This document shows positions 812 to 25,402 of a DNA stretch of 25,402 bases, piece after piece. Each line of letters begins with the position of its first letter. The stretch's first letter is position 1. The stretch spans positions 1-25,402 of IMG/VR virus record IMGVR_UViG_3300031673_000437, one strand, 5' to 3'. A model generated the notes under the pieces. It did not search any database and was not told the origin of the DNA. It saw only the letters and a list, made by a program, of their open reading frames with translations. The stretch is from a virus. A program made the position numbers and the translations under genes.

Positions 812-1463
812 CTTTACACTACCTATTCTGGAGACTGACGAGGAAGATAATTTGGTAATATCTATATGGGCGTTAACTATTGCAGAATTCCGTAGTATCG
901 TAGAATCTGACAAAAGAAAGGATAAAAAGATAGCAGTTGCTACATTATTATATATTGGTATCTGTGAAGATTATTCATCATGGGGATTAAAACTTCCGGA
1001 GCATAAATTACTGGAATATGCGCGAAGACATTCCGGCATCACTAAACTAAAAAAGGATTGGGTTCCAAACAACAGTATCAGGCTTGCAAGAGAAAGATAC
1101 AAGGATCTGCAATCCTTTTGTGCTGTAGAGGTACAGATGTTATTTGCTGCCGAGAAATCGATTCAGGCGCTAACAAGGCTTATTGTCAGGATAACTGGCG
1201 AAGCAGAACGTATCACTGAGAAGTCAGAACTTAACGAACATAATGTAGAAAACGTAATGGATCTTATCAATGAGATATTGCGCAAAACTGACAAGCTGAG
1301 TGATCGACTCGATACGCTTAAAAAGCTACAGGACAAGGTTAGTACATTAAGACGTCAAGAAAGGATAGAAAAGATTCGGGGTGGAGGTGCAGCAGGACCA
1401 AAAGAACGGCCTGAAAACTCTGTAATCATAAAGGATATGAAACATAATGGCCAAGAAAGTTAA
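801..1463 (+). CDS. Coiled-coil protein next to the terminase; possible small terminase subunit
   Basis: This 220-residue protein is mostly helical. Residues about 25-120 contain a segment with DKRKDKKIAVATLLYIGI followed by a WVPNNSIRLARERYKDLQSF helix. A long charged helix runs from about 125 to 190, with heptad-like spacing around ILRKTDKLSDRLDTLKKLQ. A basic, glycine-containing tail follows (EKIRGGGAAGPKERP). Proteins of this build often sit directly before the large terminase in Bacteroidota phages. Position, size and the oligomer-forming coiled coil make it the best small-terminase candidate in the window, but no DNA-binding helix-turn-helix is clear. It overlaps the previous gene by 11 bases and the large terminase by 17 bases, which suggests coupled translation. 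Confidence 0.6.
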   Translation: MKFDFTLPILETDEEDNLVISIWALTIAEFRSIVESDKRKDKKIAVATLLYIGICEDYSSWGLKLPEHKLLEYARRHSGITKLKKDWVPNNSIRLARERYKDLQSFCAVEVQMLFAAEKSIQALTRLIVRITGEAERITEKSELNEHNVENVMDLINEILRKTDKLSDRLDTLKKLQDKVSTLRRQERIEKIRGGGAAGPKERPENSVIIKDMKHNGQES

Positions 1464-3591
1464 TGTAACGTGGGATGATTTATACAATATAAAGTTCCGC
1501 AATACCAGGGAACTTCGGAAGGCAGCTGAGACCTTTGAGGAAAAAGGTAAATATTGTATTTATTCCGAAGGTGATCCCCTGAGAGAAGATTGGTGGGAAG
1601 AAGAAGAACGCAAATGTATCTATGGTGATTGGTTTCCTATTGGACCTGCAGGAGAACTTATCTATATTCCGGGTTATTATTATTTCTATATCAACTATTG
1701 TCCAATCCTTCATCTTGGTAAAAACCAAGATATTGATAACGAAGAATACCAAAAGCAAATTAATGTAGATGAAGAATCTGGTGATATCAATTTTGTAAAC
1801 TATGATCTGATTCGCGCTGACAGAATTGAAGGTTTCCCTAACTTTTGGGATGGTGACTATTGGCACTTTAAATATATTGATGATGCTGAGCGACTTGCCA
1901 AATTTGGTATCGAGTTAAAAAGACGTGGTGTTGGTGCTTCGTTCAAAGCTGGTGGAATGGCCAATAGAAACTATTTCCTTATTCCACAATCCAGAAGTTT
2001 CCTTATTGCTAACGAAAAAGATTTCCTGCTTGGTGGTGATGGTGTATTACAGAAAGCATGGGATATGATGTATTTCATTGACAGAAATACTGACTGGAGT
2101 AAACGTAGGCAGTACATTAGTACACAGATGGAACGTAGAGCATCCTTCAGGGAGAGCTTTCAGGGTGTTGAGATTGAACAAGGATATATGTCTACTATTA
2201 TCGGGAGAACAACAAAGAATGATCCCGGGAAAGTACGTGGTATTCGTGGCAAACTAATTTACCTGGAAGAAGCTGGAAAGGATCCATACTTTCTGGAGAA
2301 GTTCCGAATACTTGTTAACTCTGTAAAACAACAGAGAAAGGTCTTTGGGTTTATTCTTGGCTCAGGTACCGGTGGTCAAGAGGGTAGTGATTTTAAAGGA
2401 CTAACAGAAATCTTCTATCATACCGATGGATATAACTGTTTTGGTATTCCGAATAAATGGGATAGGGCGTCCGAGCACAAACTATGTGGCTATTTCTGGC
2501 CTGTTCATTTGAATTCTGAAGGATTTATGGATCCTGATGGCAACTCAGACCTTGTTACAGCTGCAGCATTTGAAAGAGAGGAACGTGAACGTATTTCAAA
2601 CAATGTTACAGAGAGGCATACGCTAGTTCGCCATAAAGCTGAGAATCCATTTAATCCAAAAGAGGCTACACTAAATATGGAAAAGAGTGTATTGCCAACT
2701 GCAGAACTGGAAGATCATCTGAACGATCTGGAGACAAGTCCACTCCGATTACATTATGGTAGAAATGGCAGGGTATCCAAAGATATGACTGGCTCAATCA
2801 AGTTTAAGGAAGATGAGAAGGCTGTTCCAATTGATTCGTTTCCATGGGATAAGAAGCATAATGAAAGCGGGTGTACAGTAATTTATGATAGCCCTATAAT
2901 TATGAACGGAAAGGTTCCGGATAATCTTTATCTTCTTGTCAATGACCCATACTATCACGATCAAAGTACTGGCCCATCCCTTGGAGCATCATACATCTAT
3001 AAGAAAATTAACAACATATCCACATTTCGGATGGACACCATTGTTGCGGCTTATGTTGGTAGACCAAAAACACTGAATGATTATCTTCGTAATATGTTTC
3101 TATTGGCAGAATATTACAATGCTAAGATATCATTTGAAATTGATCGTGGTAGATCTATTTTAGATCATGCCAGGCAAAGCAAGAAATTGAATATGTTACA
3201 ACAGGAATTTGAGTTTAAGTATAATACGCAGATTCCAAAGAGTAAAATCAAGCGTGGATATGGATTTAAGATGAGTTCTGGAATGAACGATCCTGTAAGA
3301 ACTATTGGCGAACAGTATCTTGCAGATTGGTTACTTCGTGAACGTTCTATAGACGAAGATGGAAATCTTTTACTTAATTTGCACTTAATATATGACAGAG
3401 CATTAATACAGGAATTATTAGCATATGGTGATGGTGGCAACTATGACAGGGTTGATGCCATGATTCAACTGATGTATTTTATTAAAGAAGTAGCACATGT
3501 TCCGGCAATGGAAGATTATGCAGTAGAAAAGGGTAGTTTCTTCGATCCACAACGAATAGCAAAGTTCTATCAACACGAAAAATGGTATTAA
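1447..3591 (+). CDS. terL: Phage terminase large subunit (ATPase and nuclease)
   Basis: This 714-residue protein drives DNA into the empty head at the portal and cuts the concatemer. The N-terminal ATPase carries a Walker A-type segment RRGVGASFKAG (159-169) and a Walker B segment KLIYLEEAG (269-277) with adjacent glutamates E274 and E275. A SGTGG stretch at 306-310 may be the coupling motif. The C-terminal RNase H-like nuclease shows VNDPYY with D500, ISFEIDRG with E564, and NYDRVDAM with D667 or D670 as the third acidic position. The length is larger than classical terminases but usual for crAss-like and related Bacteroidota phages. It overlaps the upstream gene and lies one base before the portal gene. 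All the expected catalytic acids are present, so it is probably functional. Confidence 0.93.
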   Translation: MAKKVNVTWDDLYNIKFRNTRELRKAAETFEEKGKYCIYSEGDPLREDWWEEEERKCIYGDWFPIGPAGELIYIPGYYYFYINYCPILHLGKNQDIDNEEYQKQINVDEESGDINFVNYDLIRADRIEGFPNFWDGDYWHFKYIDDAERLAKFGIELKRRGVGASFKAGGMANRNYFLIPQSRSFLIANEKDFLLGGDGVLQKAWDMMYFIDRNTDWSKRRQYISTQMERRASFRESFQGVEIEQGYMSTIIGRTTKNDPGKVRGIRGKLIYLEEAGKDPYFLEKFRILVNSVKQQRKVFGFILGSGTGGQEGSDFKGLTEIFYHTDGYNCFGIPNKWDRASEHKLCGYFWPVHLNSEGFMDPDGNSDLVTAAAFEREERERISNNVTERHTLVRHKAENPFNPKEATLNMEKSVLPTAELEDHLNDLETSPLRLHYGRNGRVSKDMTGSIKFKEDEKAVPIDSFPWDKKHNESGCTVIYDSPIIMNGKVPDNLYLLVNDPYYHDQSTGPSLGASYIYKKINNISTFRMDTIVAAYVGRPKTLNDYLRNMFLLAEYYNAKISFEIDRGRSILDHARQSKKLNMLQQEFEFKYNTQIPKSKIKRGYGFKMSSGMNDPVRTIGEQYLADWLLRERSIDEDGNLLLNLHLIYDRALIQELLAYGDGGNYDRVDAMIQLMYFIKEVAHVPAMEDYAVEKGSFFDPQRIAKFYQHEKWY

Positions 3592-3592
3592 A

Positions 3593-5956
3593 ATGAACGA
3601 TTACACAGTTACAAATGTTCCTGATCAGTTAAAAAAATCAACAGAAAAGAAAGCCGAGGACTTTCAGCATTATAAAGACACCATTGATGCGTATATCTCG
3701 ATGTCAAAGTTTGCTGAATACGAGGACGACAAAGAAGATCTGGAAACATGGTATAAGGTTTATAATGGAGAAAAGATTGAAGGCCACTATGCTGCCTTTG
3801 AAGATCCATTTGGAACGAAAGACACTACAAATCCACTACCACTTAATGATGTAAAACCTTGGAATGTGATCCGTTCTAATGTTGATATCATTATAAATGA
3901 AAAGAACAAGCGTCCATGGAATTATACTTCGGTAATAAGAAGCGATGATGCTATATCAAGGCGTACCGAAGAAATGGAAACTGCTATCAAGGATGCTATG
4001 CGCAAGTCTATTGTCAATATGGCTAATAAGGATGGGCGTAATACTGGCGTACCAATGCAGGATGTTCCTTCAATGGAGAGTATTCAACTGCAGTACGAAA
4101 CTTCATACCAGGACAAAAGAGCTATCAGGGCACAAAAGATAATGAAGGTTGCTATATCAGAAGCAAATGTTCGGGAGAAATTAAATCGCGAAGGTATGCA
4201 GCACTGGGTTATTGGTGGGATGATTAAGACCTTTAAGGGTATTCGCCAAAATGGATTTGTATACAATGTTGTCAATCCACTCCATCTTGACTTTATAGGA
4301 TCCAAAGATTATAAATATGGCCGGGATAAGGAAGCTGCTATCTATAGAGTGATGATGCCTTTTTCCAAAATAGTTGATAATTTCCGAGATATGCTTGATG
4401 AGGATCAGATCGAGAGATTATCACAAGGGCCTTCATGGGCTGACCAGCCAATTGATTATACAAAATTCGGTCTTCACAAAATGAACCAGAATAATAATAC
4501 TGGTGCCTTGGTAGAAGTTGTTCATTCTACTTGGCGTTCATTTCAATATATAGGGATTATTGACTATCTGGATGAGTTTGATGAACCACAAAAGATGGAA
4601 GTTGATGATACTTTCGATAAAAAGATATTTCCATATGCTATTATTGATGAAAAATGGGAATGGCGTACATGTGTTGATGAAACATACCGGATCGATGGTG
4701 ATATATATATAGGGATGAATAGTGTTCCCTGGACCTCTCATAACAAATACAATCCATCCTTGGTTAATCTTCCATATAATGAGGTTAAGTTTTCAGACCT
4801 AAACGCTAAAAACACATCCCTTGTTAAAGAGGCATACATTTATCAGTTCTTCCATAACATCTGGAAGGCGAAAATGGAACGACTTATCTCTGTAGACAAA
4901 GGAGAGGTATCTATTATTGACAGAGCGTTGCTTGCTGAGCAGGGATTGGGCCAAGCTGATATCGACAAGGCTATGTATTTTATAGAAACACAGCATATTT
5001 TGTGGGTAGATTCTCGTAGAGATGATATGGGCAAGTTTGCTCATTGGGGATCTAAGATGAATTTCTCACAACATCAGGCAGTAGCTTCATTGATACAGGT
5101 GATAAATGCTTTACGTGAAGAACTTGATATGTCTATGGGAATTACTCCACAACGAAAAGGAGAGGTATCGAATTCCGCAGGCAAAGCTGCTACCGAGTAT
5201 GCACTTGAAAGAAGCTATAATATATCTGAAGGTGTTTTTGTAGACTTTGAGAACTTCGAGGAAGAAGAATTAAATGATATTATTGATATTGCCAAGCGAG
5301 TATATTCTTCTGTTTCCGGAATGTTTATCGTTGATGGACTTCCCATCTTCCTGGATCCCGAAGAAGAAGATATCAGCGAAGAATCACTTGGAGTTTATAT
5401 GTCAAAAGCATCTAAAGACAAAGCTAAGGTGGATAGTCTTCGTGCATTGGCACAACCATTTGCACAAAATGTTGGTAAACAAGGAATTACTCCTGACATG
5501 ATTAAGTCAATTCTTGAAAGCGATAATATGTCCGAAATAACAATGGCCATGAAGAAAGCAGATATGGCTATTAAGGCATACGAAACACAACAGCAAGAGG
5601 CTGCACGTCAAATGCAACAAGATAAAATCGAGGCTGAGGCAGCAGACAAGCAAGCCGAAAGAGATTGGAAGACAAGTGAAAATGCTCTTGATAGAGAAAG
5701 GGATATCCGGGAGGCAGAAATTAAGTCAGCAGGGTTTGAACCAGAGACTCTTATTTCTGATATTGACACAACAGGAATTATTCGTGATGCAGATAAGATT
5801 CGTCAAGCATCTAGCAAGGCCCAAGCTGATCGGGAAAAATTAGGATTTGAAAAACAAAAGCATGCAGATGAACTTAAAGAAGCTGAAAAGAATCGAAAGC
5901 ATGAGCAGAAATTAAAAGACAAAGATTTAAAGAATAAAGTAGTTGGAGAGAAATAA
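3593..5956 (+). CDS. Portal protein with long C-terminal coiled coil
   Basis: This 787-residue protein should form the ring at one capsid vertex through which DNA enters and leaves and to which the tail attaches. The N-terminal region has WYKVYNGEKI and, near residues 95-110, DIIINEKNKRPWNY, matching the '(G)E..KRP' signature of Bacteroidota-phage portals. Around residues 515-545, GITPQRKGEVSNSAG followed by ALERSYNISEG is the conserved segment near the wing-to-crown region of such portals. From about 650 the chain is a highly charged helix rich in K, E, Q and A, ending DKDLKNKVVGEK; it may contact the scaffold or extend into the capsid. Position after terL and before scaffold and capsid genes is canonical. 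Confidence 0.9.
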   Translation: MNDYTVTNVPDQLKKSTEKKAEDFQHYKDTIDAYISMSKFAEYEDDKEDLETWYKVYNGEKIEGHYAAFEDPFGTKDTTNPLPLNDVKPWNVIRSNVDIIINEKNKRPWNYTSVIRSDDAISRRTEEMETAIKDAMRKSIVNMANKDGRNTGVPMQDVPSMESIQLQYETSYQDKRAIRAQKIMKVAISEANVREKLNREGMQHWVIGGMIKTFKGIRQNGFVYNVVNPLHLDFIGSKDYKYGRDKEAAIYRVMMPFSKIVDNFRDMLDEDQIERLSQGPSWADQPIDYTKFGLHKMNQNNNTGALVEVVHSTWRSFQYIGIIDYLDEFDEPQKMEVDDTFDKKIFPYAIIDEKWEWRTCVDETYRIDGDIYIGMNSVPWTSHNKYNPSLVNLPYNEVKFSDLNAKNTSLVKEAYIYQFFHNIWKAKMERLISVDKGEVSIIDRALLAEQGLGQADIDKAMYFIETQHILWVDSRRDDMGKFAHWGSKMNFSQHQAVASLIQVINALREELDMSMGITPQRKGEVSNSAGKAATEYALERSYNISEGVFVDFENFEEEELNDIIDIAKRVYSSVSGMFIVDGLPIFLDPEEEDISEESLGVYMSKASKDKAKVDSLRALAQPFAQNVGKQGITPDMIKSILESDNMSEITMAMKKADMAIKAYETQQQEAARQMQQDKIEAEAADKQAERDWKTSENALDRERDIREAEIKSAGFEPETLISDIDTTGIIRDADKIRQASSKAQADREKLGFEKQKHADELKEAEKNRKHEQKLKDKDLKNKVVGEK

Positions 5957-7271: not shown

Positions 7272-8759
7272 ATGACAACTGCCGTAAAACCGTCATTACA
7301 GGTACATCCAATGTATCAGAATGACAAAGGAATTTTTGGATATGAGGCCATAAGTAACGCATTCCAAACGAAAGCAAGTGAACTGTCAACGCCTCTTATT
7401 TGGGCAGCTAATAGCTACTTCCTCCCAGAAGATTTTGCTATTACCAAGCTGACTGAATTGGCAGGTAATGTTGAATATATTGATTCACTGGATTATGAGT
7501 ACCCGATTATGTCTGGTGACATTGATCCAATGGACACTGTTGTATCTGCTTCAACAACAACGAACGCAGGTCTTAATACGACAAAATTCATCGTTACCTT
7601 CAAACACAGACGTTTCAAGTTCCAAAATCTTGTTACCTCTGCATCTAAAGTACAATGCCAGGTAAAAGCTCAGCCGGAACCGAATGGTAAGTATTGGGAT
7701 TATGTTCTCGAGATCATGGGAAATAATAACCTTGCAACTGTTCCTGCATCTGATTTAGCTGCTGGTGCATTGTGGGAAAGAGGTGCTACACCTGTTGAGT
7801 TCGAAGAATCAGTCGGAACCGAGAGTGAAGAGCAATATCCATCTCGTGCCAAGAATCAGATTAATACTCTGAGGGCTTCTATGAAGTGGGCCGGACATAT
7901 TGCCGTTCATCCTATTGCCGGAAAATCTTCTGCTCAATTTGACAAAGTAGCATTTGATGTTCCTATGAAATTGAAGTCTGGTGGAGCCAAAACATTTAAG
8001 TATTGGATGCACTGGAAAGAGTGGCAATTCTTACTGAAGAAACTGAGATATAAAGAGGTTGATTATTGGACTTCTGAGTATAACAGATATCCTGATGGAA
8101 CTATTGCAAACAGAGGTCCGAGTGGGAAAGCAATTCTTCGTGGAGATGGTATTTTGAATCAGATCTCAAATCGTGATTACTATTCCGGAAAACTGACTGC
8201 ACAAAGGTTTGAAGAAATCGCTACCGAATTGTTTTATGGAATGAGTGGTGCTGAAAAGAAACACTTACAATTGCATACAGGTACACTGGGGATGAGGATT
8301 TTTAATGATGCTATGCAACATCAACTGAAGTCTTATTTCACTACTGAGCAAACACAAAACGTTTTTGTTACAAAAAGCGGTGATATGCTCACACTTGGTG
8401 CTTATTTCAATACCTATAAAACACGTGACGGACATACCATTACAGTTCATAGGAATCCAGTATTTGATTGGATTTACAGGAATAGTCCTAAGTATATGGG
8501 CCTTCCTTCATTCTCAGGTGAATTTGTTTTCTTGGATATGAGTACATATAATGGAGTTGCTAACTTCAGGAAAGTAACCAGGAAAGGACGTGAGATGAAC
8601 TATGGTATTGTAGCAGGTATGGCAACACTTCCAGCCGAGTATGGCAATACTCTGTACAAAGCAAGTGATAAGGACATAGCAAGTATCGAATATATTTGGG
8701 AACAAGGTATCCAGATTTATGATACATCATATTGCTATCGCCTTGGATTAAATATTTAA
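7272..8759 (+). CDS. Major capsid protein, crAss-like family
   Basis: This 495-residue protein should be the HK97-fold shell subunit. Segments that recur in capsid proteins of crAss-like and related Bacteroidota phages are visible: NVEYIDSLDYEYPIMSGDI near residues 65-85, a YWTSEYNRYPDGTI segment at about 265-278, RGDGILNQIS at about 290-300, LHTGTLGMRIFNDAM at about 335-350, and VFLDMSTYNGVANFRKV at about 418-434. It follows the scaffold gene after a 21-base A/T-rich gap with no Shine-Dalgarno sequence. The length matches the family (close to 500 residues). No cleaved N-terminal delta domain is obvious. Confidence 0.9.
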   Translation: MTTAVKPSLQVHPMYQNDKGIFGYEAISNAFQTKASELSTPLIWAANSYFLPEDFAITKLTELAGNVEYIDSLDYEYPIMSGDIDPMDTVVSASTTTNAGLNTTKFIVTFKHRRFKFQNLVTSASKVQCQVKAQPEPNGKYWDYVLEIMGNNNLATVPASDLAAGALWERGATPVEFEESVGTESEEQYPSRAKNQINTLRASMKWAGHIAVHPIAGKSSAQFDKVAFDVPMKLKSGGAKTFKYWMHWKEWQFLLKKLRYKEVDYWTSEYNRYPDGTIANRGPSGKAILRGDGILNQISNRDYYSGKLTAQRFEEIATELFYGMSGAEKKHLQLHTGTLGMRIFNDAMQHQLKSYFTTEQTQNVFVTKSGDMLTLGAYFNTYKTRDGHTITVHRNPVFDWIYRNSPKYMGLPSFSGEFVFLDMSTYNGVANFRKVTRKGREMNYGIVAGMATLPAEYGNTLYKASDKDIASIEYIWEQGIQIYDTSYCYRLGLNI

Positions 8760-8780: not shown

Positions 8781-9722
8781 ATGTTAGCAGATGTAAAAGT
8801 GAAAGAAAAGATCGTCATTGTAAAAAGAGTTTACAAGGACACTCGCCTTCCGGAAGATATTTTGGAAGCAAGTAAAATGCGTTTTGGCCCAGCTGTAAAG
8901 AATGATGTTCTGGTAATGCCAATTTCCGCAGAAGATGCGACTGGTATTCGTATTTATGCAGAATTGTGTAATTCAACACCAGGGCAACATGGTTTCCGGG
9001 AAGCTATTAATGAATATCTTAATAGTGTAAGGGTAAACGTTCCGCATGAAGGGTTGTTTCTTAATATAGCAACTCATGATGATGGCATGCCTATCGAACC
9101 TAGAGATTATCTCTATCACCAGATTGCTTTGACAAACATCAAAACAAATACTGGTATTGTTCATAATACTGAATTTGAGGCAATGACACATCCATTAGGA
9201 CAGTTCTATCTTGAAGATGTCAATAAGAAAAAGCGGGAACAGGTACAATCCGTTGATGATAAAGCTGATGCACTTATAGCTATGAAAGTAATGGTAAATG
9301 AAAGTCCTGAAAAGGTTGACTGGATCCTCAGTTACTTTGGAAGGAATCCATTTCCAATGACTGCAGCTGATAAGAAAATTGCACTCAACGATATTATTGA
9401 AGGGAAGTCTACCGGTGATTTTACTACCAAAACAAAGGGATTTGGCGAGTTAAGGTACAAGGACAGGCCAGCAAAGTTTTTCGAAATAATCTGTGCTGAT
9501 AAAAATCTGGAATATCGTTCCATGATTGAATTACTTGAATTCCATAAAGTCGTTACCACTTCTGGAGGTAAATATTTCTTTGATGAAATTGAACTCGGAA
9601 TGGGTATTGATGATGTTGTAAAACGTCTAAGTGGAACAAGTGCAGATTCAAAGAAAATTTTACTGCAACTGAAAGCAAGGTATGATGAAGTAAAGCGCGA
9701 GCTTGCAGGTAAATCAGAATAA
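8781..9722 (+). CDS. Conserved-looking virion-module protein of unknown function
   Basis: This 313-residue protein is not recognised. It directly follows the capsid gene, where head-completion, cement or auxiliary capsid proteins are common. The N-terminal half is a mixed fold with ISAEDATGIRIYAEL and HEGLFLNIATHDDG. The C-terminal half is helical, with a possible winged-helix-sized stretch around RSMIELLEFHKVVTTSGGKYFF and a basic-acidic terminal helix (LKARYDEVKRELAGKSE). No membrane segment or signal peptide is present. Its last base is the first base of the next ATG (TAATG), so it is probably co-translated with the next virion gene. A head-completion or auxiliary capsid role is inference. 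Confidence 0.65.
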   Translation: MLADVKVKEKIVIVKRVYKDTRLPEDILEASKMRFGPAVKNDVLVMPISAEDATGIRIYAELCNSTPGQHGFREAINEYLNSVRVNVPHEGLFLNIATHDDGMPIEPRDYLYHQIALTNIKTNTGIVHNTEFEAMTHPLGQFYLEDVNKKKREQVQSVDDKADALIAMKVMVNESPEKVDWILSYFGRNPFPMTAADKKIALNDIIEGKSTGDFTTKTKGFGELRYKDRPAKFFEIICADKNLEYRSMIELLEFHKVVTTSGGKYFFDEIELGMGIDDVVKRLSGTSADSKKILLQLKARYDEVKRELAGKSE

Positions 9723-10864
9723 TGTTTATACTCGACCATCATAATTATGTCCGGCAAGGGTTACAGAATGTCAACTCTAACTTATATCGTGGCTTGAAGC
9801 CTGAGCAGATTGATATAGCACTTAACCGGTCTATGAATGTCGAATTTGATGATAGATATCTACTAAAGGGAATTGGAGGTTCGTTTGAAAGCACCACGAA
9901 GCGTTTAGGCGAACTTTCAGCCTTGGTAGTAGAAAATCATTTACTAGATATTATTGTTGCCTGTACACCTTCAGGAGATATAGAAAGAGCATACAGCGGT
10001 ATACCCGTAAAATTCAGGGCAAACCTTCCAAGGGATTTTGCCATATTTGATAATATTCAAGCGAGAGTATATTACAATGACTGTGGTGTTATTTCTTATT
10101 CTATTGGAGACATTACTAATTATTCATACAGTCCTATACACATGATCTCTAATCCCAAGTTTCTTGGGAACAATACTTTTACAGCTGTCCAATTGAAATT
10201 ACCATCACTTACTGCGATTGATATTACTGCAGGTGTCGGTTTTCCGGCATGGAGTGATTACGAATTTCCTCAGGATGCAGAAGAGTTTGTAAAACATTTT
10301 ATTACCAGGGCCAATGTTATCCTTGCCGCTGCTAGTGGCGATTACAATAAATACAGATTACATTGGGAATCATATAATGGTGTTTTCTATTCGGAACATT
10401 TTATAATTTCATCCACATTAAGTCTTGGATCAACAAGCGAGGCGGAAATTATATTGACCGGAATGGGAAGTTATCTTAAGAGTGGTTTTTCAATTCTTAA
10501 GTATAAGTATATCCATACTCCATCTAATGGAGATTATAAAATACCAGATTATGTTTTGAGAGAACACTATGGGCTTGAAAGGACATTGAAAAATGCTTTT
10601 CATCGCCCAAATAGCGACAAGGTAATTATTACCCAACATGAAAAGAGTTTTAATTTTTATACAGACGAAACCTATTTTGTTGCTGATGCTCTACTTAGTT
10701 ATATCAGAAGGCCAAAGCGTATGAGCCTATCCATGAACCAAGGTTGTGAGTTACTTCCAATGTTACACACAAAGGTTGGAGATGGAGCTATTACTTATTT
10801 GAAGGGAGCAGAGAACCACCCAGGTTATCAGCAAATGATGGTTGAAAGCACAAAAGGAGATTAG
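9722..10864 (+). CDS. Virion structural protein, connector-type (Bacteroidota phage family)
   Basis: This 380-residue protein has an N-terminal segment (QGLQNVNSNLYRGLKPEQID, then IALNRSMNVEFDDRYLLKGI, residues about 12-52). It also has a C-terminal segment (YIRRPKRMSLSMNQGCELLP, then LHTKVGDGAITYLKGAENHP, about 325-370). Together these recall proteins I associate with head-tail structural genes of Bacteroidota phages. The middle is beta-rich with many Tyr and Ser residues. There is no signal peptide or membrane helix. The TAATG overlap with the upstream gene and a two-base gap to the next place it in the post-capsid block. A connector or neck role is a guess from memory of the signature; an internal virion protein is possible. 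Confidence 0.6.
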   Translation: MFILDHHNYVRQGLQNVNSNLYRGLKPEQIDIALNRSMNVEFDDRYLLKGIGGSFESTTKRLGELSALVVENHLLDIIVACTPSGDIERAYSGIPVKFRANLPRDFAIFDNIQARVYYNDCGVISYSIGDITNYSYSPIHMISNPKFLGNNTFTAVQLKLPSLTAIDITAGVGFPAWSDYEFPQDAEEFVKHFITRANVILAAASGDYNKYRLHWESYNGVFYSEHFIISSTLSLGSTSEAEIILTGMGSYLKSGFSILKYKYIHTPSNGDYKIPDYVLREHYGLERTLKNAFHRPNSDKVIITQHEKSFNFYTDETYFVADALLSYIRRPKRMSLSMNQGCELLPMLHTKVGDGAITYLKGAENHPGYQQMMVESTKGD

Positions 10865-10866
10865 CA

Positions 10867-11193
10867 ATGAGTAGTTCATTAAAAATTAACGAAAGAATAG
10901 AATCCGTAATTCCTGGAATAGAGTACAAGGTTACTACTACATCTGGAAAAGAATTCTACATGTGTTTCCTTCATAAAACCACCAATGGTGAATTACATGA
11001 TGGAGTCACAAACGAAGACCTAGCTGCGATCTTGATTGATCGCCTCGAAAAGCAGAATAACAAAAAGAGCGATAGATTTAATAACAAAGCTATATTCCAC
11101 CTAAGAGAAGCACAACGACATCTGGAGGATAGAGGATTTTTCTTCAGAAACTATAAGCGCAAAAGAGATATTATAAAAAATAAAGAACAATGA
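10867..11193 (+). CDS. Acb2/Tad1-like small protein, possible cyclic-nucleotide sponge
   Basis: This 108-residue protein has HDGVTNEDLAAILIDRLEKQ (44-63) followed by NNKAIFHLREAQRHLEDR (72-89). This matches the pattern I know from small phage proteins now named Acb2/Tad1-domain: a 'GVTNEdLlaIvIDRL' helix, then a second 'ENAlAitkLEEAl.wL..R' helix forming a hairpin. Proven members sequester cyclic di-/trinucleotides or cADPR-type signals and block CBASS or Thoeris defence. Residues 1-43 form a short beta-rich lead (EYKVTTTSGKEFYMCF), also common in this family. The usual Cys-Arg-Glu-Asn is replaced by DRFNNKA, and the tail is basic (NYKRKRDIIKNK), so ligand binding is uncertain. It overlaps the next structural gene by ATGA, an unusual place for a counter-defence gene. 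Confidence 0.6.
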   Translation: MSSSLKINERIESVIPGIEYKVTTTSGKEFYMCFLHKTTNGELHDGVTNEDLAAILIDRLEKQNNKKSDRFNNKAIFHLREAQRHLEDRGFFFRNYKRKRDIIKNKEQ

Positions 11194-12602
11194 GTAGAGA
11201 ACGTAAAGTCATGGTTGCTAGCACATTTGCTATGGCAGCCACACCCGCAACCACAAAAGGTCAATTAACTGTTATGCTAAGGACACCAGCTGGAGCTCTC
11301 GAAGCCCTTGCTGCTGCAAAGACAATTGCCACTCACCCGAGTATAATTTTCGCCCTTGGCAAAGGAGTAGGTTTGGCACCTGATATGGTTGAGATTAAAG
11401 GTAAATTTTTAACACGAGCATTTAGTGCAAATTATGTCATGGGATCTGCAAAAAATGCCGTTGCAGGATATAATGGAGTTGATTTAAACCTATTGCCGGT
11501 AAATCTTTACAGTGATTACGAATATGCAATTCGTATTATGCCTGTAGATACAGAAAATGAGAATGCAAAGTGGGAACCAACTGGAAAGTATTTCACAAAG
11601 CTATCAGCTTATAATACTCCTTCGGCCGCTCATGGAAGGTATAATCTCATTAAAGATCTTGTTGCTAACATCAATGCAGCTACCGGTATTCCTGTAAATG
11701 CTTATATCCGCCAAAGTGAAACAATGGAGCAACTGCTTGCAGATTGTGATGTTGTCACTGGATCTACTACTGTAACATGTGCCGACACATCTACACTTGT
11801 AGCTGGTGATTTTGTTACACTTGGATATAGCACGTACAAGGTTGTATCTGTTGTTCCTGACACAACTTTTGAAATTGATCGTCCATGGGAAGGTGCTGCT
11901 GAAACTATTCAGTATACACAAGCCCTTGGTGGAACTGCTGCTGTTACCAATGGAAGTACTGCCGTAGCTTCTACTACACATGGAGCTATTGCTGGTGACT
12001 ATGTAAGTCTTGGCAATGTTGTTTATAAGGTTGTTTCTGCAACTACAAATGCCTTTGTTATTGACAGGCCATATGAAGGAGCAACTAACGCCTCACTTAC
12101 TGCACTTGCAGTACCAGCTGTAGGCGCTGCTTGTCTTGGTTCAGCTTGTTTTGTATTATCAGCCACAGTGGATGATGAGACAGGCATTGGAATCCATTTC
12201 GAAGCATCTGAAATCGATGAAGACTTCACTGTTTCCTTCGAAGGTGGTTTTGATGGTGGTGAACAAGCAACTGTTGCATATAGTGCCCTGACATATTCTG
12301 TTGGTTCCGGTACTGAGGCTGTTGCAGAAGATCTGTTATCTGGTCCTTCATTTGGATTACTGAGTAAGGTTGGTGTTAAACCTGATGTAAGGTCAACATC
12401 TGCACTTGAGACATCTGATTATAACAAGTGGGGATTTGTTTACGATGATCCTGAGCCAAGTAATATGAGTATGACTCATAACAATTTGAAGGATTTAGAA
12501 ATCTATATGTTGGATGGCGCAACGGTTACCAATTTCTATACATATCTGAATAACTGGGTAGCATCCACACAGGCCGCTAATCAGTTAGCCAATGTTTCAT
12601 AA
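11190..12602 (+). CDS. Virion structural protein with two tandem beta domains
   Basis: This 470-residue protein is not assigned to a named family. The N-terminal part (about 1-185) contains DYEYAIRIMPVDTEN and a helix LIKDLVANINAATGIPVNAY, a pattern seen in abundant tail or capsid-surface proteins. Residues about 189-240 and 252-303 are two copies of a small beta unit, each with AGD(F/Y)V(T/S)LG, YKVVS and IDRP(W/Y)EGA. Residues 320-375 form another beta segment (FTVSFEGGFDGGE). The C-terminal part ends in a helix with FYTYLNNWVASTQAA. The low-charge, Ala/Thr/Val/Gly-rich composition suits an assembled virion protein. A strong terminator lies 13 bases downstream, so it ends a transcription block. 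Tail, head fibre or decoration are all possible. Confidence 0.75.
   Translation: MSRERKVMVASTFAMAATPATTKGQLTVMLRTPAGALEALAAAKTIATHPSIIFALGKGVGLAPDMVEIKGKFLTRAFSANYVMGSAKNAVAGYNGVDLNLLPVNLYSDYEYAIRIMPVDTENENAKWEPTGKYFTKLSAYNTPSAAHGRYNLIKDLVANINAATGIPVNAYIRQSETMEQLLADCDVVTGSTTVTCADTSTLVAGDFVTLGYSTYKVVSVVPDTTFEIDRPWEGAAETIQYTQALGGTAAVTNGSTAVASTTHGAIAGDYVSLGNVVYKVVSATTNAFVIDRPYEGATNASLTALAVPAVGAACLGSACFVLSATVDDETGIGIHFEASEIDEDFTVSFEGGFDGGEQATVAYSALTYSVGSGTEAVAEDLLSGPSFGLLSKVGVKPDVRSTSALETSDYNKWGFVYDDPEPSNMSMTHNNLKDLEIYMLDGATVTNFYTYLNNWVASTQAANQLANVS
11754..12098 (+). repeat. Tandem intragenic domain repeat (two copies, about 52 codons each)
   Basis: Copy 1 (11754-11909) and copy 2 (11943-12098) encode the same small beta unit. 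Conserved elements are a VTxGST start, AGDxVxLG, YKVVS, and IDRPxEGA. The DNA has diverged well beyond exact repeat status, so the duplication is old. A related unit (VGDLITLDHTTY, SDTEFTVSEAMW) occurs in the fibre gene at 19104. Confidence 0.75.
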
Positions 12603-12615
12603 TTGTGTATAATTT

Positions 12616-12643
12616 AGAAGGTGGCGAAAGTCACCTTCTTTTT
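12616..12643 (+). terminator. Strong intrinsic terminator with GAAA tetraloop
   Basis: AGAAGGTGGC (12616-12625) pairs with GTCACCTTCT (12630-12639) across a GAAA loop, giving ten pairs with one G-T wobble. T residues follow at 12639-12643 and again after AC. GNRA-capped stems of this kind are efficient Rho-independent terminators. It separates the capsid-side block from the tail block, although no clear promoter is visible before the next gene, so partial read-through is likely. Confidence 0.9.
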
Positions 12644-20634: not shown

Positions 20635-21590
20635 TGATTTATACGACTATTTCCGTTCAGCATGTGTATCGTACGATAGAGCTTGTTTGTAATTTAGATG
20701 ATGATAACGAACTTGCCAATATTTACGAATTCATTGGGCTAGCCATAAGAGATATTGGTGCTTTTATGACAATGGAAAGAGTCACAGAAAAGGCAACAGT
20801 GGAAGATCACAGGGTACCATTACCTTGTGACTTCTTTGCCTTGAACCAAGTTTGTTATAATGGATGGCCTTTGACATGGACTGGACAGACGTTTAAATAC
20901 CAATATTTGTTATGCGATGATTGCTTTAACCAAAACAGCACAGTATTCGATACAGATAACGTGGTACGCCAAGCCTCTCGGTTAAGCACAGTGCTTGCCG
21001 ACTATACTACCGATAATGGAGTCCAGATTGTGAATGTGAATCAGATAGTGAAGGTACTTCCTTCGCATACTGCAGGTGGAGAAATAGGTCATTACTATAA
21101 GCGTGTAAACACTGAATTGGGTTCTACAGATTTATCTTCGGTTGATTATACCGGAGTCAACTGGGAAGATGTTTCTACAGATACCAATGAGCTTAATACT
21201 GGAGCAGTGCTTTCCAGTGTTGGCAGGCCAGATGATTACAGCTATCATATTAATCCCGGCTATATAATAACAAGTTTTCAAGAAGGCACAGTCGAGATAT
21301 CTTACGATAGGATACCTACCGATGATGATGGTTTTTACAAAATACCTGACGATCCTGAATATTTAAAGGCTGTCATTTATTATGTAAAGATGATGCTAGC
21401 CCATAGAGGCTTTAAGTTTCCAGAGGAACCATTGGCTGTATTGAAAAATGAATGGAAATATTACAGAGGGATGGCAAGATCAAATGCACAATGGATGAAT
21501 ATTGATCAGATGGTAGCATTTACTAAAAGGTGGACGAGACCTCTTGCTGTTCTTGACAGAGCGCAAAACTTCTTTAAACCTGAATTTTAA
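20634..21590 (+). CDS. Tail ring/adaptor-type protein, crAss-like
   Basis: This 318-residue protein has YTTISVQHVYRTIELVCN near the start, DIGAFMTMERVTEKATVED and RVPLPCDFFALNQVCY (residues about 40-80), then YHINPGYIITSFQEG (about 200-215), and VEISYDRIPTDDDGFYKIPD (about 219-238). The end has YYRGMARSNAQWMNIDQMVA. Proteins with 'lPCDF..l' and 'gyi.tsf..G.v.i.Y.a.p.D..G.p.iPD' patterns are ring or tubular-A-like adaptors placed next to the large stabilisation/muzzle gene in crAss-like phages. Downstream it overlaps that gene as TAATG, which fits the pairing. Confidence 0.7.
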   Translation: MIYTTISVQHVYRTIELVCNLDDDNELANIYEFIGLAIRDIGAFMTMERVTEKATVEDHRVPLPCDFFALNQVCYNGWPLTWTGQTFKYQYLLCDDCFNQNSTVFDTDNVVRQASRLSTVLADYTTDNGVQIVNVNQIVKVLPSHTAGGEIGHYYKRVNTELGSTDLSSVDYTGVNWEDVSTDTNELNTGAVLSSVGRPDDYSYHINPGYIITSFQEGTVEISYDRIPTDDDGFYKIPDDPEYLKAVIYYVKMMLAHRGFKFPEEPLAVLKNEWKYYRGMARSNAQWMNIDQMVAFTKRWTRPLAVLDRAQNFFKPEF

Positions 21591-24500
21591 TGAAAGAGAT
21601 TGGAAGAGGATTATTTACAAACTCAGAACTCCTTAATCAGCCCGATGGTCTTCCTTGTGATGGATTAAATGCTAATTATGACAAGAAAGATGGATCAGTC
21701 AGCAACGAAGAAGGTTTTGATGTTCATCTTACAGCTGTCAGGTATAAGGATTCTGCAACTGTCGCTACACAAACAACAATTTTCCCGGATGGCGGTATTG
21801 TCATAGGACAGGCCCACGTTGACGAAACTAGAAATATTATTTTTGTATATGCATCTACCAATAACTATCACACTATTGGCATTCTACATAATAGTGGTTT
21901 GTATGAAATATACTTTCGGGAAAATCTTTTAAATTTTGATTATAGATTTCCAATAACAGCTGAAGCTAGAATAAAAAATGGCGAGATTATAGTCTCCTGG
22001 CAAGACAATAATGAGAAAGACAGGATTCTGAATCTTGATGATCTACCATTTCCATCTGGTGTTTATGCTGATCGCACATTAAAGGTGCATTCAGAGATAC
22101 ATCTTTTGAATGTAGTTCCGAATAGTTTACAAGGAACTATGGAGATAACAGATTTGTTTGATGCTGGTGGTAGTCTTATTTCTGGAGCATATCAGGGATT
22201 TTTCTGGTATGAAACAAAAGATGGAACGAAACTTCCATATTCTGAGCCTACTCCGCCTATTATTGTAAATGATGCTTCGACATCAGGGGGATGGGAAAAG
22301 TATGGTGGTTGTCGTGTAGAAACACAAACGTCAAAGGCTATTGGTTTTGAATTTAATCTAGTCAATGGGTATGATTTTATTGGTATTGGTGTTTTACATA
22401 CAATAAATGGGATTACATCTGTATACGAAATAAAACGGATGGAAGTCCTTTCAACAAATTTCAATTATACATATACTGGATTTGAAGACAGAATAACAAT
22501 AGAACTTCGTGATTATATTTCAGCAAAGGCTCCATATAAAAGATCGAAAGTTGTATTCCAGACTAATGATAATCGTCTTGGCTTTGCAAACTTAACTGGC
22601 CTTGATAAAGTCGACTATCAGAAATACGCAAATAATATTGTCGTAAGGTCTAAAAAACAAAAAACATATCATCATAATAAATCACTAGGTACAGCTGGAA
22701 ATAAAAACAGCGTATTTATTGCCAACAATAGAAGCCTAATGCCCGGTGATGTTGTTGCACTATATATTGGCCTTGAATTATCAGATAATCGCGGTGTTTA
22801 TGTTTTTCACGTTCCTGGTAGGGAGATGGAAGAAATTCACTCCAATGACATTTACTATACAGGATTCATGGAAGATATGTTGGTAAACGAATCATATATT
22901 GCTGCAGCTAATCCGTGGCTAAAATCAGACGATGCAATTAGTCCTGGTAATGTCAGATATTTCCAAACTAGAAATACTGGATGGTATTCTGAAACAGGAA
23001 TGGGATTCTGGCAAAACGAAGATGAATTTTATCCAAGTGAAGAACTTGACACGAATGGTGATTGGGAAGTATGGGATAGCACAGGAAAAATAGGTGACTT
23101 ATGGGAAAAAAATATAAGGCACCATAAACTTCCGACTATGAGGGGAGTAGTTTTACCTGGTAGCGATCAAAATAAAAATACATTTTCTTGGTGGAATGCA
23201 AGTGATAAGAGCTCCTATATTTATGGGCTTGAACTTAGTAATATTTACATTCCTCCGGAACTTGAAAATGATGTAGTAAAGATTCATGTGTTTATGGCAA
23301 AAAGAACTACACAGAATCAATTAGTTCTTGGACAGGGGATCTTATTTCACAATCAGACAGAATCTTCTCCACGTGATGATGGATTTTCTACACATGGATT
23401 TGACCTTATGGTTGAGGGTAACGGAAACCTGGCTACGCATATTACAAATGAATTCATGTATAAATTTTGGCGAGATGTTGATACTGTTACCGGTATTAAT
23501 AAAAAATTTGTCATGTATGATCATTATCCCAGTTCATATGCTGGAGTCGTTGAACATAAATACCATCTCCGGATGATCTATGATACAAAATACAATGAAG
23601 ATATTTTAGAATCAGATCCAAACCCACCATCTGATATAGGAGAAAAAGCTGCAGCTAGGTTTCAGGGAGTATTAAAATATATTGATAATTTAGCAACACC
23701 AACATTACAACAAGATCCTGTTCCAGATAATTATCCGGAAGTTGAGAGAAGATATCTAACAACGTTTTGGGCATGGAAGCAAAATGTTTATCAGAATTTT
23801 AGTGAGCAAGAGCTTGTATTGATTGGTTCCACTGAAACATTGCCTATCGCTCCATATTATTCTATTGGATCGATGTATGGTGGAGATTGTTGTCCAACGG
23901 ATTATGCTTTTAGATTGATCAACAAAGAGAGTTACATTCCTACTGATCAAGGGTTACCTGAATATTCAAAACGCTTTCTTTATTTCTTCCCATCAATTTG
24001 TAAAAACTTTGCAGCATTTCGCAATAGGGAAGACGCTGATGATGGAGATAGTGATAATCATTATTATCCTTATGATACTGGAAGTGATTGGGGATGGCCA
24101 TTTTTGAGAGAAGATATTGATGCCGAAGTCAATAAGTATAACTATGACTCATCATATAGTAGAGTTCGGGAACCTGTTCACTTTACTCCTTTTAATTATC
24201 GAAGAAAATTAATTACTAAGTTTCCTTTGCGTATAATTCTTAGTGAGAAGTCAAACGAGGAAGAGTCTACAGATTCATGGAGAACGTTCCTACCGAATAA
24301 TTATTATGACTTGCCTGGTAACAAAGGAGAGATCGTAAATATTGCTACGTATGGAGATGAGATAATAATAAATACTACTCGGTCACTGTTTAAGACTATA
24401 GGATCCAAGCAATTAAAATTACAAGAGGTTACTACTTATATTGGAAGTGGAGAAATATTCTCAATGGCACCACAAGAACAGGTTTTGCCTGGTAATGGTT

Positions 24501-25402
24501 ATGCCGGTTGTTCGAGCAAGTATTCTTGTCAGAAAACAAAACAGGGATATATATACTGCAATCAGGATCGTGGATTAATTTTTCAATATGATGGTAAGTT
24601 AAAAGAGATATCTGCACTAGGAAATAAAAAATGGTTTGAAGACAATCTTCCATCTAAGTTAAAAAAGATAATGCTTGATAAGGCTAGTGAAGATGGTACG
24701 CCTACTGTTGATTTTGACTTTGATAATCCAATTGCTACTGTTGGCCTGGTAACCGGATTAGATATAAAATATGACCGATTGGTAGTAACAAAGATTGATT
24801 ATAGCATTGCAGATGGAATAACATATGGTGGTGTTGTTACTGATTCATTCCCGGGTGCAGTTCCTCAGGGGTTGTATTATCTCGCAAGTAGTGATGAGGC
24901 TATAGCTGGAAGATTTGTTTATTGGAATGGCTTTACAATTACAAAAGACAATATTCGATTAACAAATACTGATTACTTTGTTGATGAATCATGGACAATG
25001 ACATTTTCACTTGGAAAGAATATGTGGAGAACCTGGCATAGTTATGTTCCTAAATTTATGTTTAATAACGACAACAAATCTTTCTATGCTACTGTTGATA
25101 TTGATACATATATGACCCAGGGCATTTTCTCTGGTAATGCAAAAGACAAGTATGGTATATATTTCGATCAGGCTACGAAGAATGAATTCTATGTAGAATT
25201 TGTAATTAACATAGAACATGATTATACTACTGGACAGCCATTACCAATTGAAGTGAATAAGTTATATGATGCGTTTGAATGGATAACCGAAGTGTATAAT
25301 TCAGACAGACATAATGAGTATGAAAAATCATTTACATCATTGCTTATTTATAATGAGAATCAGAGCACTGATATTATTACACTGTCTGCGGATAATCTTA
25401 AG
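21590..25402 (+). CDS. Large muzzle/stabilisation-type tail protein, crAss-like (3' end outside window)
   Basis: The frame starts at the ATG that overlaps the previous TAA (TAATG) and is still open at the last base, giving 1271 residues so far. Spot checks at both ends and near 24,500 agree with one continuous frame. Two family segments are clear: GNGYAGCSSKYSCQ followed by QGYIYCNQDRGLIFQYDG (about 968-1000), a beta-propeller-like pattern, and MWRTWHSYVPKFMFNND (about 1145-1161), the 'W.S.HSY.P' signature. The last residues (LYDAFEWITEVYNSD, then FTSLLIYNENQST) match the following 'kvydn.e..te...... f..l.vyN.yQst' part. In crAss-like phages this protein forms much of the short tail end. Confidence 0.85.
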   Translation, partial: MKEIGRGLFTNSELLNQPDGLPCDGLNANYDKKDGSVSNEEGFDVHLTAVRYKDSATVATQTTIFPDGGIVIGQAHVDETRNIIFVYASTNNYHTIGILHNSGLYEIYFRENLLNFDYRFPITAEARIKNGEIIVSWQDNNEKDRILNLDDLPFPSGVYADRTLKVHSEIHLLNVVPNSLQGTMEITDLFDAGGSLISGAYQGFFWYETKDGTKLPYSEPTPPIIVNDASTSGGWEKYGGCRVETQTSKAIGFEFNLVNGYDFIGIGVLHTINGITSVYEIKRMEVLSTNFNYTYTGFEDRITIELRDYISAKAPYKRSKVVFQTNDNRLGFANLTGLDKVDYQKYANNIVVRSKKQKTYHHNKSLGTAGNKNSVFIANNRSLMPGDVVALYIGLELSDNRGVYVFHVPGREMEEIHSNDIYYTGFMEDMLVNESYIAAANPWLKSDDAISPGNVRYFQTRNTGWYSETGMGFWQNEDEFYPSEELDTNGDWEVWDSTGKIGDLWEKNIRHHKLPTMRGVVLPGSDQNKNTFSWWNASDKSSYIYGLELSNIYIPPELENDVVKIHVFMAKRTTQNQLVLGQGILFHNQTESSPRDDGFSTHGFDLMVEGNGNLATHITNEFMYKFWRDVDTVTGINKKFVMYDHYPSSYAGVVEHKYHLRMIYDTKYNEDILESDPNPPSDIGEKAAARFQGVLKYIDNLATPTLQQDPVPDNYPEVERRYLTTFWAWKQNVYQNFSEQELVLIGSTETLPIAPYYSIGSMYGGDCCPTDYAFRLINKESYIPTDQGLPEYSKRFLYFFPSICKNFAAFRNREDADDGDSDNHYYPYDTGSDWGWPFLREDIDAEVNKYNYDSSYSRVREPVHFTPFNYRRKLITKFPLRIILSEKSNEEESTDSWRTFLPNNYYDLPGNKGEIVNIATYGDEIIINTTRSLFKTIGSKQLKLQEVTTYIGSGEIFSMAPQEQVLPGNGYAGCSSKYSCQKTKQGYIYCNQDRGLIFQYDGKLKEISALGNKKWFEDNLPSKLKKIMLDKASEDGTPTVDFDFDNPIATVGLVTGLDIKYDRLVVTKIDYSIADGITYGGVVTDSFPGAVPQGLYYLASSDEAIAGRFVYWNGFTITKDNIRLTNTDYFVDESWTMTFSLGKNMWRTWHSYVPKFMFNNDNKSFYATVDIDTYMTQGIFSGNAKDKYGIYFDQATKNEFYVEFVINIEHDYTTGQPLPIEVNKLYDAFEWITEVYNSDRHNEYEKSFTSLLIYNENQSTDIITLSADNLK

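What the first reader, a model, noticed from the sequence alone, without database searches (positions are those of the whole stretch)
10867..11193. Acb2/Tad1-like sponge candidate embedded in the virion operon
The 108-residue protein carries HDGVTNEDLAAILIDRLEKQ and NNKAIFHLREAQRHLEDR, matching the two-helix hairpin signature of Acb2/Tad1-type proteins that trap CBASS or Thoeris signals. It is coupled by ATGA to an abundant structural gene and lies two bases after another virion gene, so it would be made late with virion parts, which is unusual for counter-defence. It may have been recruited for a structural role or be packaged to act early in the next cell. The usual CREN stretch is changed to RFNN, so the ligand may differ.
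Basis: partly seen in the sequence, partly recalled or inferred. Interest (0 to 1): 0.7.

Follow-up and report, generated by a model that had tools for sequence, protein, structure and literature searches.

The report
Divergent Tad1-fold protein in crAss-like phage
A small protein encoded among the head and tail genes of a crAss-like phage is a distant relative of Tad1, a phage protein that soaks up bacterial alarm signals, but most of Tad1's signature residues are missing, so it probably binds something else or does a different job.

Summary
ORF 10867-11193 (108 aa) is a real, translationally coupled gene inside the head/tail module of a Crassvirales phage. It is Tad1-type, not Acb2-type. It matches phrog_2428 (E=1.8e-10), a family that also matches all 37 Tad1-set proteins aligned here. 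A small profile with two jumbo-phage relatives finds solved Tad1 chains (1.2e-11). A model made without any Tad1 sequence already has Clostridium botulinum Tad1 as its best PDB match; a deeper model (pLDDT 89) gives Z 8.6. With six proteins from other Crassvirales contigs it forms a separate branch (support 99/97) that lacks much of the Tad1 signature (FQxGP, the C of CxEN, the RGVEGT tail); the window protein keeps 13 of 32 well-conserved positions. In those relatives the gene lies just before an HTH-HU-TerL cassette. In the window it lies between a tail-barrel ring gene and the gene in the auxiliary-capsid position, a slot empty in readable relatives. phiKZ gp184 is a published Tad1 that is virion-associated and injected, so packaging would not be unprecedented, but here it is untested. 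Most likely: a Tad1-fold binder with a remodelled or lost ligand site. New variant of a known kind.

The parts
10867..11193 (+). Tad1-fold protein, 108 aa: N-terminal beta-strands (residues 5-34), helix 1 (49-62), helix 2 (69-107), basic C-terminal tail in place of the Tad1 RGVEGT tail
   Evidence: phrog_2428 1.8e-10; AlphaFold pLDDT 89.4 with E5-8, E11-15, E19-23, E29-34, H49-62, H69-107; Tad1 is the best PDB match; net charge +5 in residues 90-108
10849..10866 (+). AAAGGAG Shine-Dalgarno-like site upstream of the 108-aa gene, the clearest among the 25 starts inspected
   Evidence: upstream sequences of the 25 main ORFs; function inferred
11190..11193 (+). ATGA stop/start overlap coupling the 108-aa gene to the 470-aa gene
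   Evidence: sequence
9722..10864 (+). tail-barrel ring protein, 380 aa, related to crAss001 gp34 (ring 4/5)
   Evidence: family profile vs PDB: Ring protein 4/5 gp34 E=6.3e-10, ring protein 3 gp35 3.4e-4
11190..12602 (+). probable auxiliary capsid protein (crAss001 gp36 position), 470 aa
   Evidence: same place in relatives; weak profile match to gp36, 24% probability but full-length; no PDB match by sequence
8781..9722 (+). 313-aa protein conserved between MCP and ring protein in relatives
   Evidence: phmmer hits down to 2.4e-12 in many Crassvirales contigs, same order
7272..8759 (+). major capsid protein
   Evidence: PF23898 Crass_capsid E=2.4e-57
1447..3591 (+). terminase large subunit
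   Evidence: phrog_6681 E=1.5e-90
3593..5956 (+). portal protein
   Evidence: phrog_6547 E=1.4e-81
12616..12639 (+). terminator-like stem-loop (10 pairs) with T-rich tail after the 470-aa gene, probable end of the unit holding the 108-aa gene
   Evidence: pattern scan; the number of such sites is not above shuffles, but this is the strongest stem and lies 14 nt after a stop codon

Best explanation
The protein is a full-length homologue of Tad1 (N-terminal beta-sheet plus two-helix hairpin) belonging to a Crassvirales-specific branch of that family. By homology it should form dimers that assemble into a hexamer. In this branch much of the conserved Tad1 signature, including the FQxGP stretch, the alpha1-alpha2 loop and the C-terminal tail, has been replaced, while residues that look fold-determining (G46, TNE 48-50, R59, N72, L86, R89) are kept. 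I think it most likely still binds a small nucleotide-like ligand, but not the same one in the same way as Tad1, and that in this phage it is made late because it has been placed in the ring/auxiliary-capsid transcription unit. Shown: gene, coupling, homology, predicted fold, branch, loss of signature residues, position. Inferred: oligomer, ligand binding, retargeting, late timing.
For: phrog_2428 hit, a family that matches all 44 aligned members including the 37 Tad1-set proteins; two GenBank members are annotated Tad1 (SPG24, SBSphiJ7). PDB profile hits to CmTad1/CbTad1. Model from a Crassvirales-only alignment: top Foldseek hit 7uav, probability 1.00; deeper model pLDDT 89.4 with Tad1 entries at ranks 1-15 of Foldseek and 1-8 of VIA-align, Z 8.6 over 96 residues, rmsd 2.8. 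Window plus six Crassvirales proteins form one side of a branch, 99/97. Signature comparison: of 32 positions conserved in at least 80% of 37 Tad1-set proteins, 13 kept, 19 lost; of 10 invariant ones, 7 kept, while G to K37, G to L43 and N to D45 are lost, and the six relatives change the same three. Homologues persist in several contigs with open frames, which argues for a conserved function.
Against: No ligand data. With so many conserved residues gone, a non-binding structural or regulatory role is almost equally likely. The exact ligand-contact residues of Tad1 were not read from a primary paper (the Nature 2024 paper is not held); the pocket is known here from a review that names conserved loops, the C-terminal tail and both helices (PMC12043709). 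Late expression rests on operon position alone. The alignment of the C-terminal helix is uncertain because of a 4-5 residue insertion in the window protein.
Confidence: 0.42

Rival explanations
1. The Tad1 fold has been repurposed in Crassvirales for a job that does not involve sequestering signals, such as a minor virion or assembly factor, or a nucleic-acid or regulator partner.
For: 19 of 32 Tad1-conserved positions lost, the RGVEGT tail replaced by a basic tail (net +3 to +7) in all seven branch members. In six relatives the gene is fixed beside an HTH regulator gene and, where readable, an HU/IHF-like gene and TerL, which looks like a core gene rather than a mobile counter-defence gene. 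In the window it sits between ring and auxiliary capsid genes.
Against: No virion or DNA-binding evidence; the fold and residues such as N72, TNE, R59 and R89 are kept; tested Tad1 homologues bind nucleotides (PMC12043709).
Confidence: 0.34
2. It is a nucleotide sponge that is packaged as virion cargo (tail barrel or capsid interior) and ejected with the DNA to act at once in the next cell, as phiKZ gp184 is.
For: phiKZ gp184 is Tad1 (orf184, PMC12043709; identical to PDB chain 8y6v_I), annotated structural, an inner-body interactor validated as injected (PMC10449902; one western blot). Crassviruses store cargo in tail barrel and capsid (PMC10172136). The gene is made with a ring protein.
Against: gp184 has an N-terminal extension of about 110 residues and keeps FACEEN and GTEGT motifs; the window protein has neither. 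Nothing here tests packaging, and the known crassvirus cargo proteins are large.
Confidence: 0.14
3. It is an ordinary Tad1 that binds gcADPR and cyclic trinucleotides as characterised Tad1 proteins do; its place in the operon is chance.
For: Fold and family.
Against: Loss of the FQxGP stretch, C and E of CxEN, and the RGVEGT tail that are near-invariant in 37 Tad1-set proteins.
Confidence: 0.07
4. It is an Acb2-type sponge.
For: Acb2 and Tad1 share the hairpin domain (Pfam PF24729 names both).
Against: It has the N-terminal beta-sheet of Tad1 instead of the short Acb2 helix; no Acb2 chain seen among PDB sequence or fold matches; PF24729 does not hit it.
Confidence: 0.03

Closest known systems
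Tad1 (Thoeris anti-defence 1): CbTad1 7UAV/8SMD, CmTad1 8KBB-8KBD
   Same: Same fold order (beta-sheet then long two-helix hairpin), full-length sequence homology, conserved F34, G46, N49, E50, R59, N72, L86, R89
   Different: Shorter N-terminus; FQxGP, GxNGV, aromatic-Q, CxEN and RGVEGT elements changed; sits on another branch; function untested
phiKZ gp184 (virion-associated, injected Tad1)
   Same: Tad1 domain; encoded by a tailed phage in whose virion it is carried (PMC10449902)
   Different: gp184 has a long N-terminal extension and keeps FACEEN and GTEGT; it branches with the Tad1 set, not with the window protein; packaging of the window protein unknown
Tad1-fold genes before the HTH-HU-TerL cassette in other Crassvirales contigs (L007/L095, L096, L097, L102, L104, L105)
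   Same: Same branch (99/97), same lost Tad1 residues, shared K37 and basic tail
   Different: 22-33% identical; different genome position; keep E before the conserved N, which the window protein has lost
Acb2 (anti-CBASS 2)
   Same: Two-helix hairpin, nucleotide sponge in phages
   Different: Acb2 has a short N-terminal helix and no N-terminal sheet (PMC12043709); no sequence or fold match found here

Membership tests
Tad1 | Sequence homology to characterised Tad1 | tested here: met
   phrog_2428 1.8e-10; PDB Tad1 chains 1.2e-11 with a 3-sequence profile, 3.9e-5 with the Crassvirales-only profile
Tad1 | N-terminal antiparallel beta-sheet followed by two long helices | tested here: met
   Model mb5b8fb23aea5, pLDDT 89.4; 7uaw Z 8.6, rmsd 2.8 over 96 residues; also top match with a model from an alignment without Tad1
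Tad1 | Conserved Tad1 signature (FQxGP, GxNGVxNE, CxEN, RGVEGT) | tested here: not met
   13 of 32 conserved positions kept; FQxGP, C/E of CxEN and RGVEGT lost
Tad1 | Clusters with other Tad1 proteins in a tree | tested here: not met
   Falls with six Crassvirales proteins opposite all 40 Tad1-set proteins, 99/97
Tad1 | Hexamer that binds gcADPR and cyclic trinucleotides | not testable with these tools
   No multimer prediction or assay available
Acb2 | Short N-terminal helix plus two antiparallel helices, no sheet | tested here: not met
   Four N-terminal strands predicted
Acb2 | Sequence match to Acb2 or Pfam PF24729 | tested here: inconclusive
   No hit for this protein although PF24729 hits 24 of 44 aligned members; no Acb2 chain in the PDB profile search
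Virion-packaged sponge (phiKZ gp184-like) | Present in virion and injected | not testable with these tools
   Needs virion proteomics or an injection assay
Crassvirales virion module | Gene lies within the conserved head/tail gene order | tested here: met
   TerL, portal, MCP, ring and probable auxiliary capsid neighbours

The most novel reading that the evidence does not exclude
Crassvirales carry their own branch of Tad1-fold proteins that has been retargeted to a different, possibly unknown, immune nucleotide of their Bacteroidota hosts (or to a virion or DNA partner), and in this phage the gene was moved into the ring/auxiliary-capsid unit so that the protein is made with, and perhaps loaded into, the particle.
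Probability: 0.3. Interest if true: 0.72.

Novelty: new variant of a known kind. Interest (0 to 1): 0.47.

Why it matters
Crassvirales are very abundant gut phages, and in the one paper search made with these terms no listed paper reported a Tad1-like sponge in them. A branch that keeps the Tad1 fold but has lost much of its signature is a natural test of how a sponge fold changes ligand or is taken over for another role. If it binds a signal, the ligand would point to an immune messenger used by the hosts. If it is packaged, it would be another case, after phiKZ, of counter-defence carried in the virion.

Tried and rejected
Direct Pfam, NCBIfam, PADLOC and phmmer-PDB searches with the single protein gave nothing useful. 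Exact-peptide scans of viral contigs with the protein, the MCP or a two-sequence alignment found no relatives; a TerL scan found only a 5.4-kb piece that is identical over the aligned TerL and, by its length, should stop short of the gene. Genome contigs gave no relative. phages tblastn found no homologue of the 380-aa or 470-aa neighbours, and none of the L097 relative. A TerL tree could not place the window relative to the contigs that carry the gene before TerL, because of long branches. Considered and rejected: Acb2 membership; an unusual genetic code at the right end, which I first suspected and noted (the 1271-aa frame from 21590 is open in the standard code and runs off the window); a chance match. 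The AAAGGAG site may be only the coding end of the ring gene. Whether a second copy of the gene lies left of the window edge could not be seen.

Full report
The window is a 25.4-kb piece of a Crassvirales phage: the MCP matches the Pfam crassvirus capsid model (2.4e-57), and TerL and portal match PHROG families (1.5e-90, 1.4e-81). It has no tRNA and no Rfam match. The record held is this fragment only.

Observation. The ORF 10867-11193 encodes 108 aa with the quoted motifs. It begins 2 nt after the 380-aa gene and overlaps the 470-aa gene by ATGA. A 10-pair terminator-like stem lies 14 nt after the 470-aa gene, so the unit MCP-313-380-108-470 probably ends there (inference).

Neighbours. The 380-aa protein and its relatives, as a profile, hit crAss001 ring protein 4/5 gp34 (6.3e-10) and ring 3 gp35 (3.4e-4) in the PDB. 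Downstream, the 227-aa and 318-aa proteins match rings R2 and R1 (hhalign 80% and 95%). The 470-aa protein is in the place of the auxiliary capsid protein gp36 and aligns to it over its length, but weakly (24%). The roles of gp34, gp35, gp36, gp40 and gp43 are from the crAss001 atlas (PMC10172136).

Family. The protein matches phrog_2428 (1.8e-10). That family matches all 44 members of a later alignment, including the 37 proteins gathered as Tad1 relatives, and two GenBank members are annotated Tad1. A profile of this protein with two jumbo-phage relatives finds CmTad1 and CbTad1 in the PDB (1.2e-11, 4e-8) and phiKZ gp184 (0.0086). The Pfam Acb2/Tad1 hairpin model hits 24 of the 44 but not this one. 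It is therefore Tad1-type. Acb2, which has an N-terminal helix and no sheet (PMC12043709), is not supported.

Fold. With an alignment of only Crassvirales homologues (7 rows) AlphaFold gave pLDDT 63.5, and Foldseek already ranked CbTad1 first with probability 1.00. With 44 rows, pLDDT is 89.4, with four strands and two helices; the first 15 Foldseek and first 8 VIA-align matches are Tad1, Z 8.6 over 96 residues. The second model includes Tad1 rows and is not independent of them; the first is.

Relatives. Scans with TerL and then with the hit found six Crassvirales contigs (L007/L095, L096, L097, L102, L104, L105) with a full-length homologue, 22-33% identical. A profile of three of them, without the window protein, finds the window protein at 5.1e-7 and a GenBank-annotated Tad1 at 6e-5. 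In these contigs the gene lies just before an HTH gene, followed, where the contig reaches that far, by an HU/IHF-like gene, a gene of about 190 aa and TerL. Behind the MCP of three such contigs no Tad1-fold gene was seen: in one (L110) the ring gene is followed directly by the gene in the auxiliary-capsid position, in a second (L109) likewise after extra genes between MCP and ring, and in the third (L111) the order is different. In three further relatives (L070, L074, L086) the ring gene is directly followed by a gene of about 310-400 aa in the auxiliary-capsid position. The window's 220-aa gene before TerL matches the 190-aa gene (98%), but the two ORFs further left do not match HU or HTH, and the place where a second copy would lie may be beyond the window edge.

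Branch and signature. In a tree of 47 proteins the window protein and the six relatives lie on one side of a branch (99/97), opposite all 40 Tad1-set proteins, phiKZ gp184 included. Across 37 Tad1-set rows, 32 positions (start methionine left out) are conserved in at least 80%; the window keeps 13. Of 10 invariant positions it keeps 7 (F34, G46, N49, N72, L86, R89, R98, the last uncertain in alignment) and changes three (K37, L43, D45), which the six relatives also change. FQxGP, C and E of CxEN and the RGVEGT tail are lost; the tail is replaced by a basic segment in all seven. A review describes the Tad1 ligand pocket as four conserved loops plus the C-terminal tail of one protomer and the helices of the other (PMC12043709), so the changes plausibly fall in the pocket; I could not read contact residues from a primary paper.

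Precedent. phiKZ orf184 is Tad1 and counters CBASS and Thoeris signals (PMC12043709; PMC13282480). Its product is identical to PDB chain 8y6v_I, is annotated structural, and was reported injected with inner-body proteins, by one western blot (PMC10449902). Another Tad1-set homologue, Lactococcus phage 1706 orf71, is annotated a structural protein. So a Tad1 made with virion parts is not unprecedented. gp184, however, keeps the CxEN and GTEGT motifs and has a long N-terminal extension, unlike the window protein.

Mechanism. Shown: homology, predicted fold, branch, signature loss, position, coupling. Inferred: a hexamer, a ligand site that is either changed or lost, and late timing. I put a changed-ligand binder slightly ahead (0.42) of a repurposed non-sponge role (0.34), with packaging as cargo at 0.14. 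Which of these is right needs the binding and virion assays listed.

Noticed in passing
window 21590-25402: Open frame of 1271 aa running off the window end, in the position of the crassvirus muzzle/tail protein; open in the standard code, so no recoding is needed. Not searched by profile.
   Followed up: partly
window 10849-10866: The 108-aa gene has a clear AAAGGAG upstream of its ATG, whereas most other genes in the window lack one; it lies within the end of the ring gene and may be coincidence or a hint of foreign origin.
   Followed up: partly
L104:5370-7795: Two adjacent ORFs that read like tyrosine recombinases (by eye, not searched) lie immediately upstream of the Tad1-fold gene on a 94-kb crass-like contig.
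   Followed up: no
L105:2829-3254: A small gene that reads like an N-acetylmuramoyl-L-alanine amidase (by eye, not searched) sits between the 190-aa gene and TerL in this relative.
   Followed up: no
L091:332-1109: Aeromonas phage AerS_266: the Tad1 homologue is followed directly by a gene annotated as an anti-CBASS nuclease, a counter-defence pair.
   Followed up: no
L090:2905-3258: Lactococcus phage 1706 orf71, a Tad1-set homologue, is deposited as a structural protein, a possible further virion-associated Tad1.
   Followed up: no
L194:43470-44162 (phiKZ gp184) and the aligned Tad1 set: PHROG families 2428, 23843 and 22140, all labelled unknown function, match the Tad1-set proteins and could be relabelled; phrog_22140 matches phiKZ gp184 over its full length.
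   Followed up: yes
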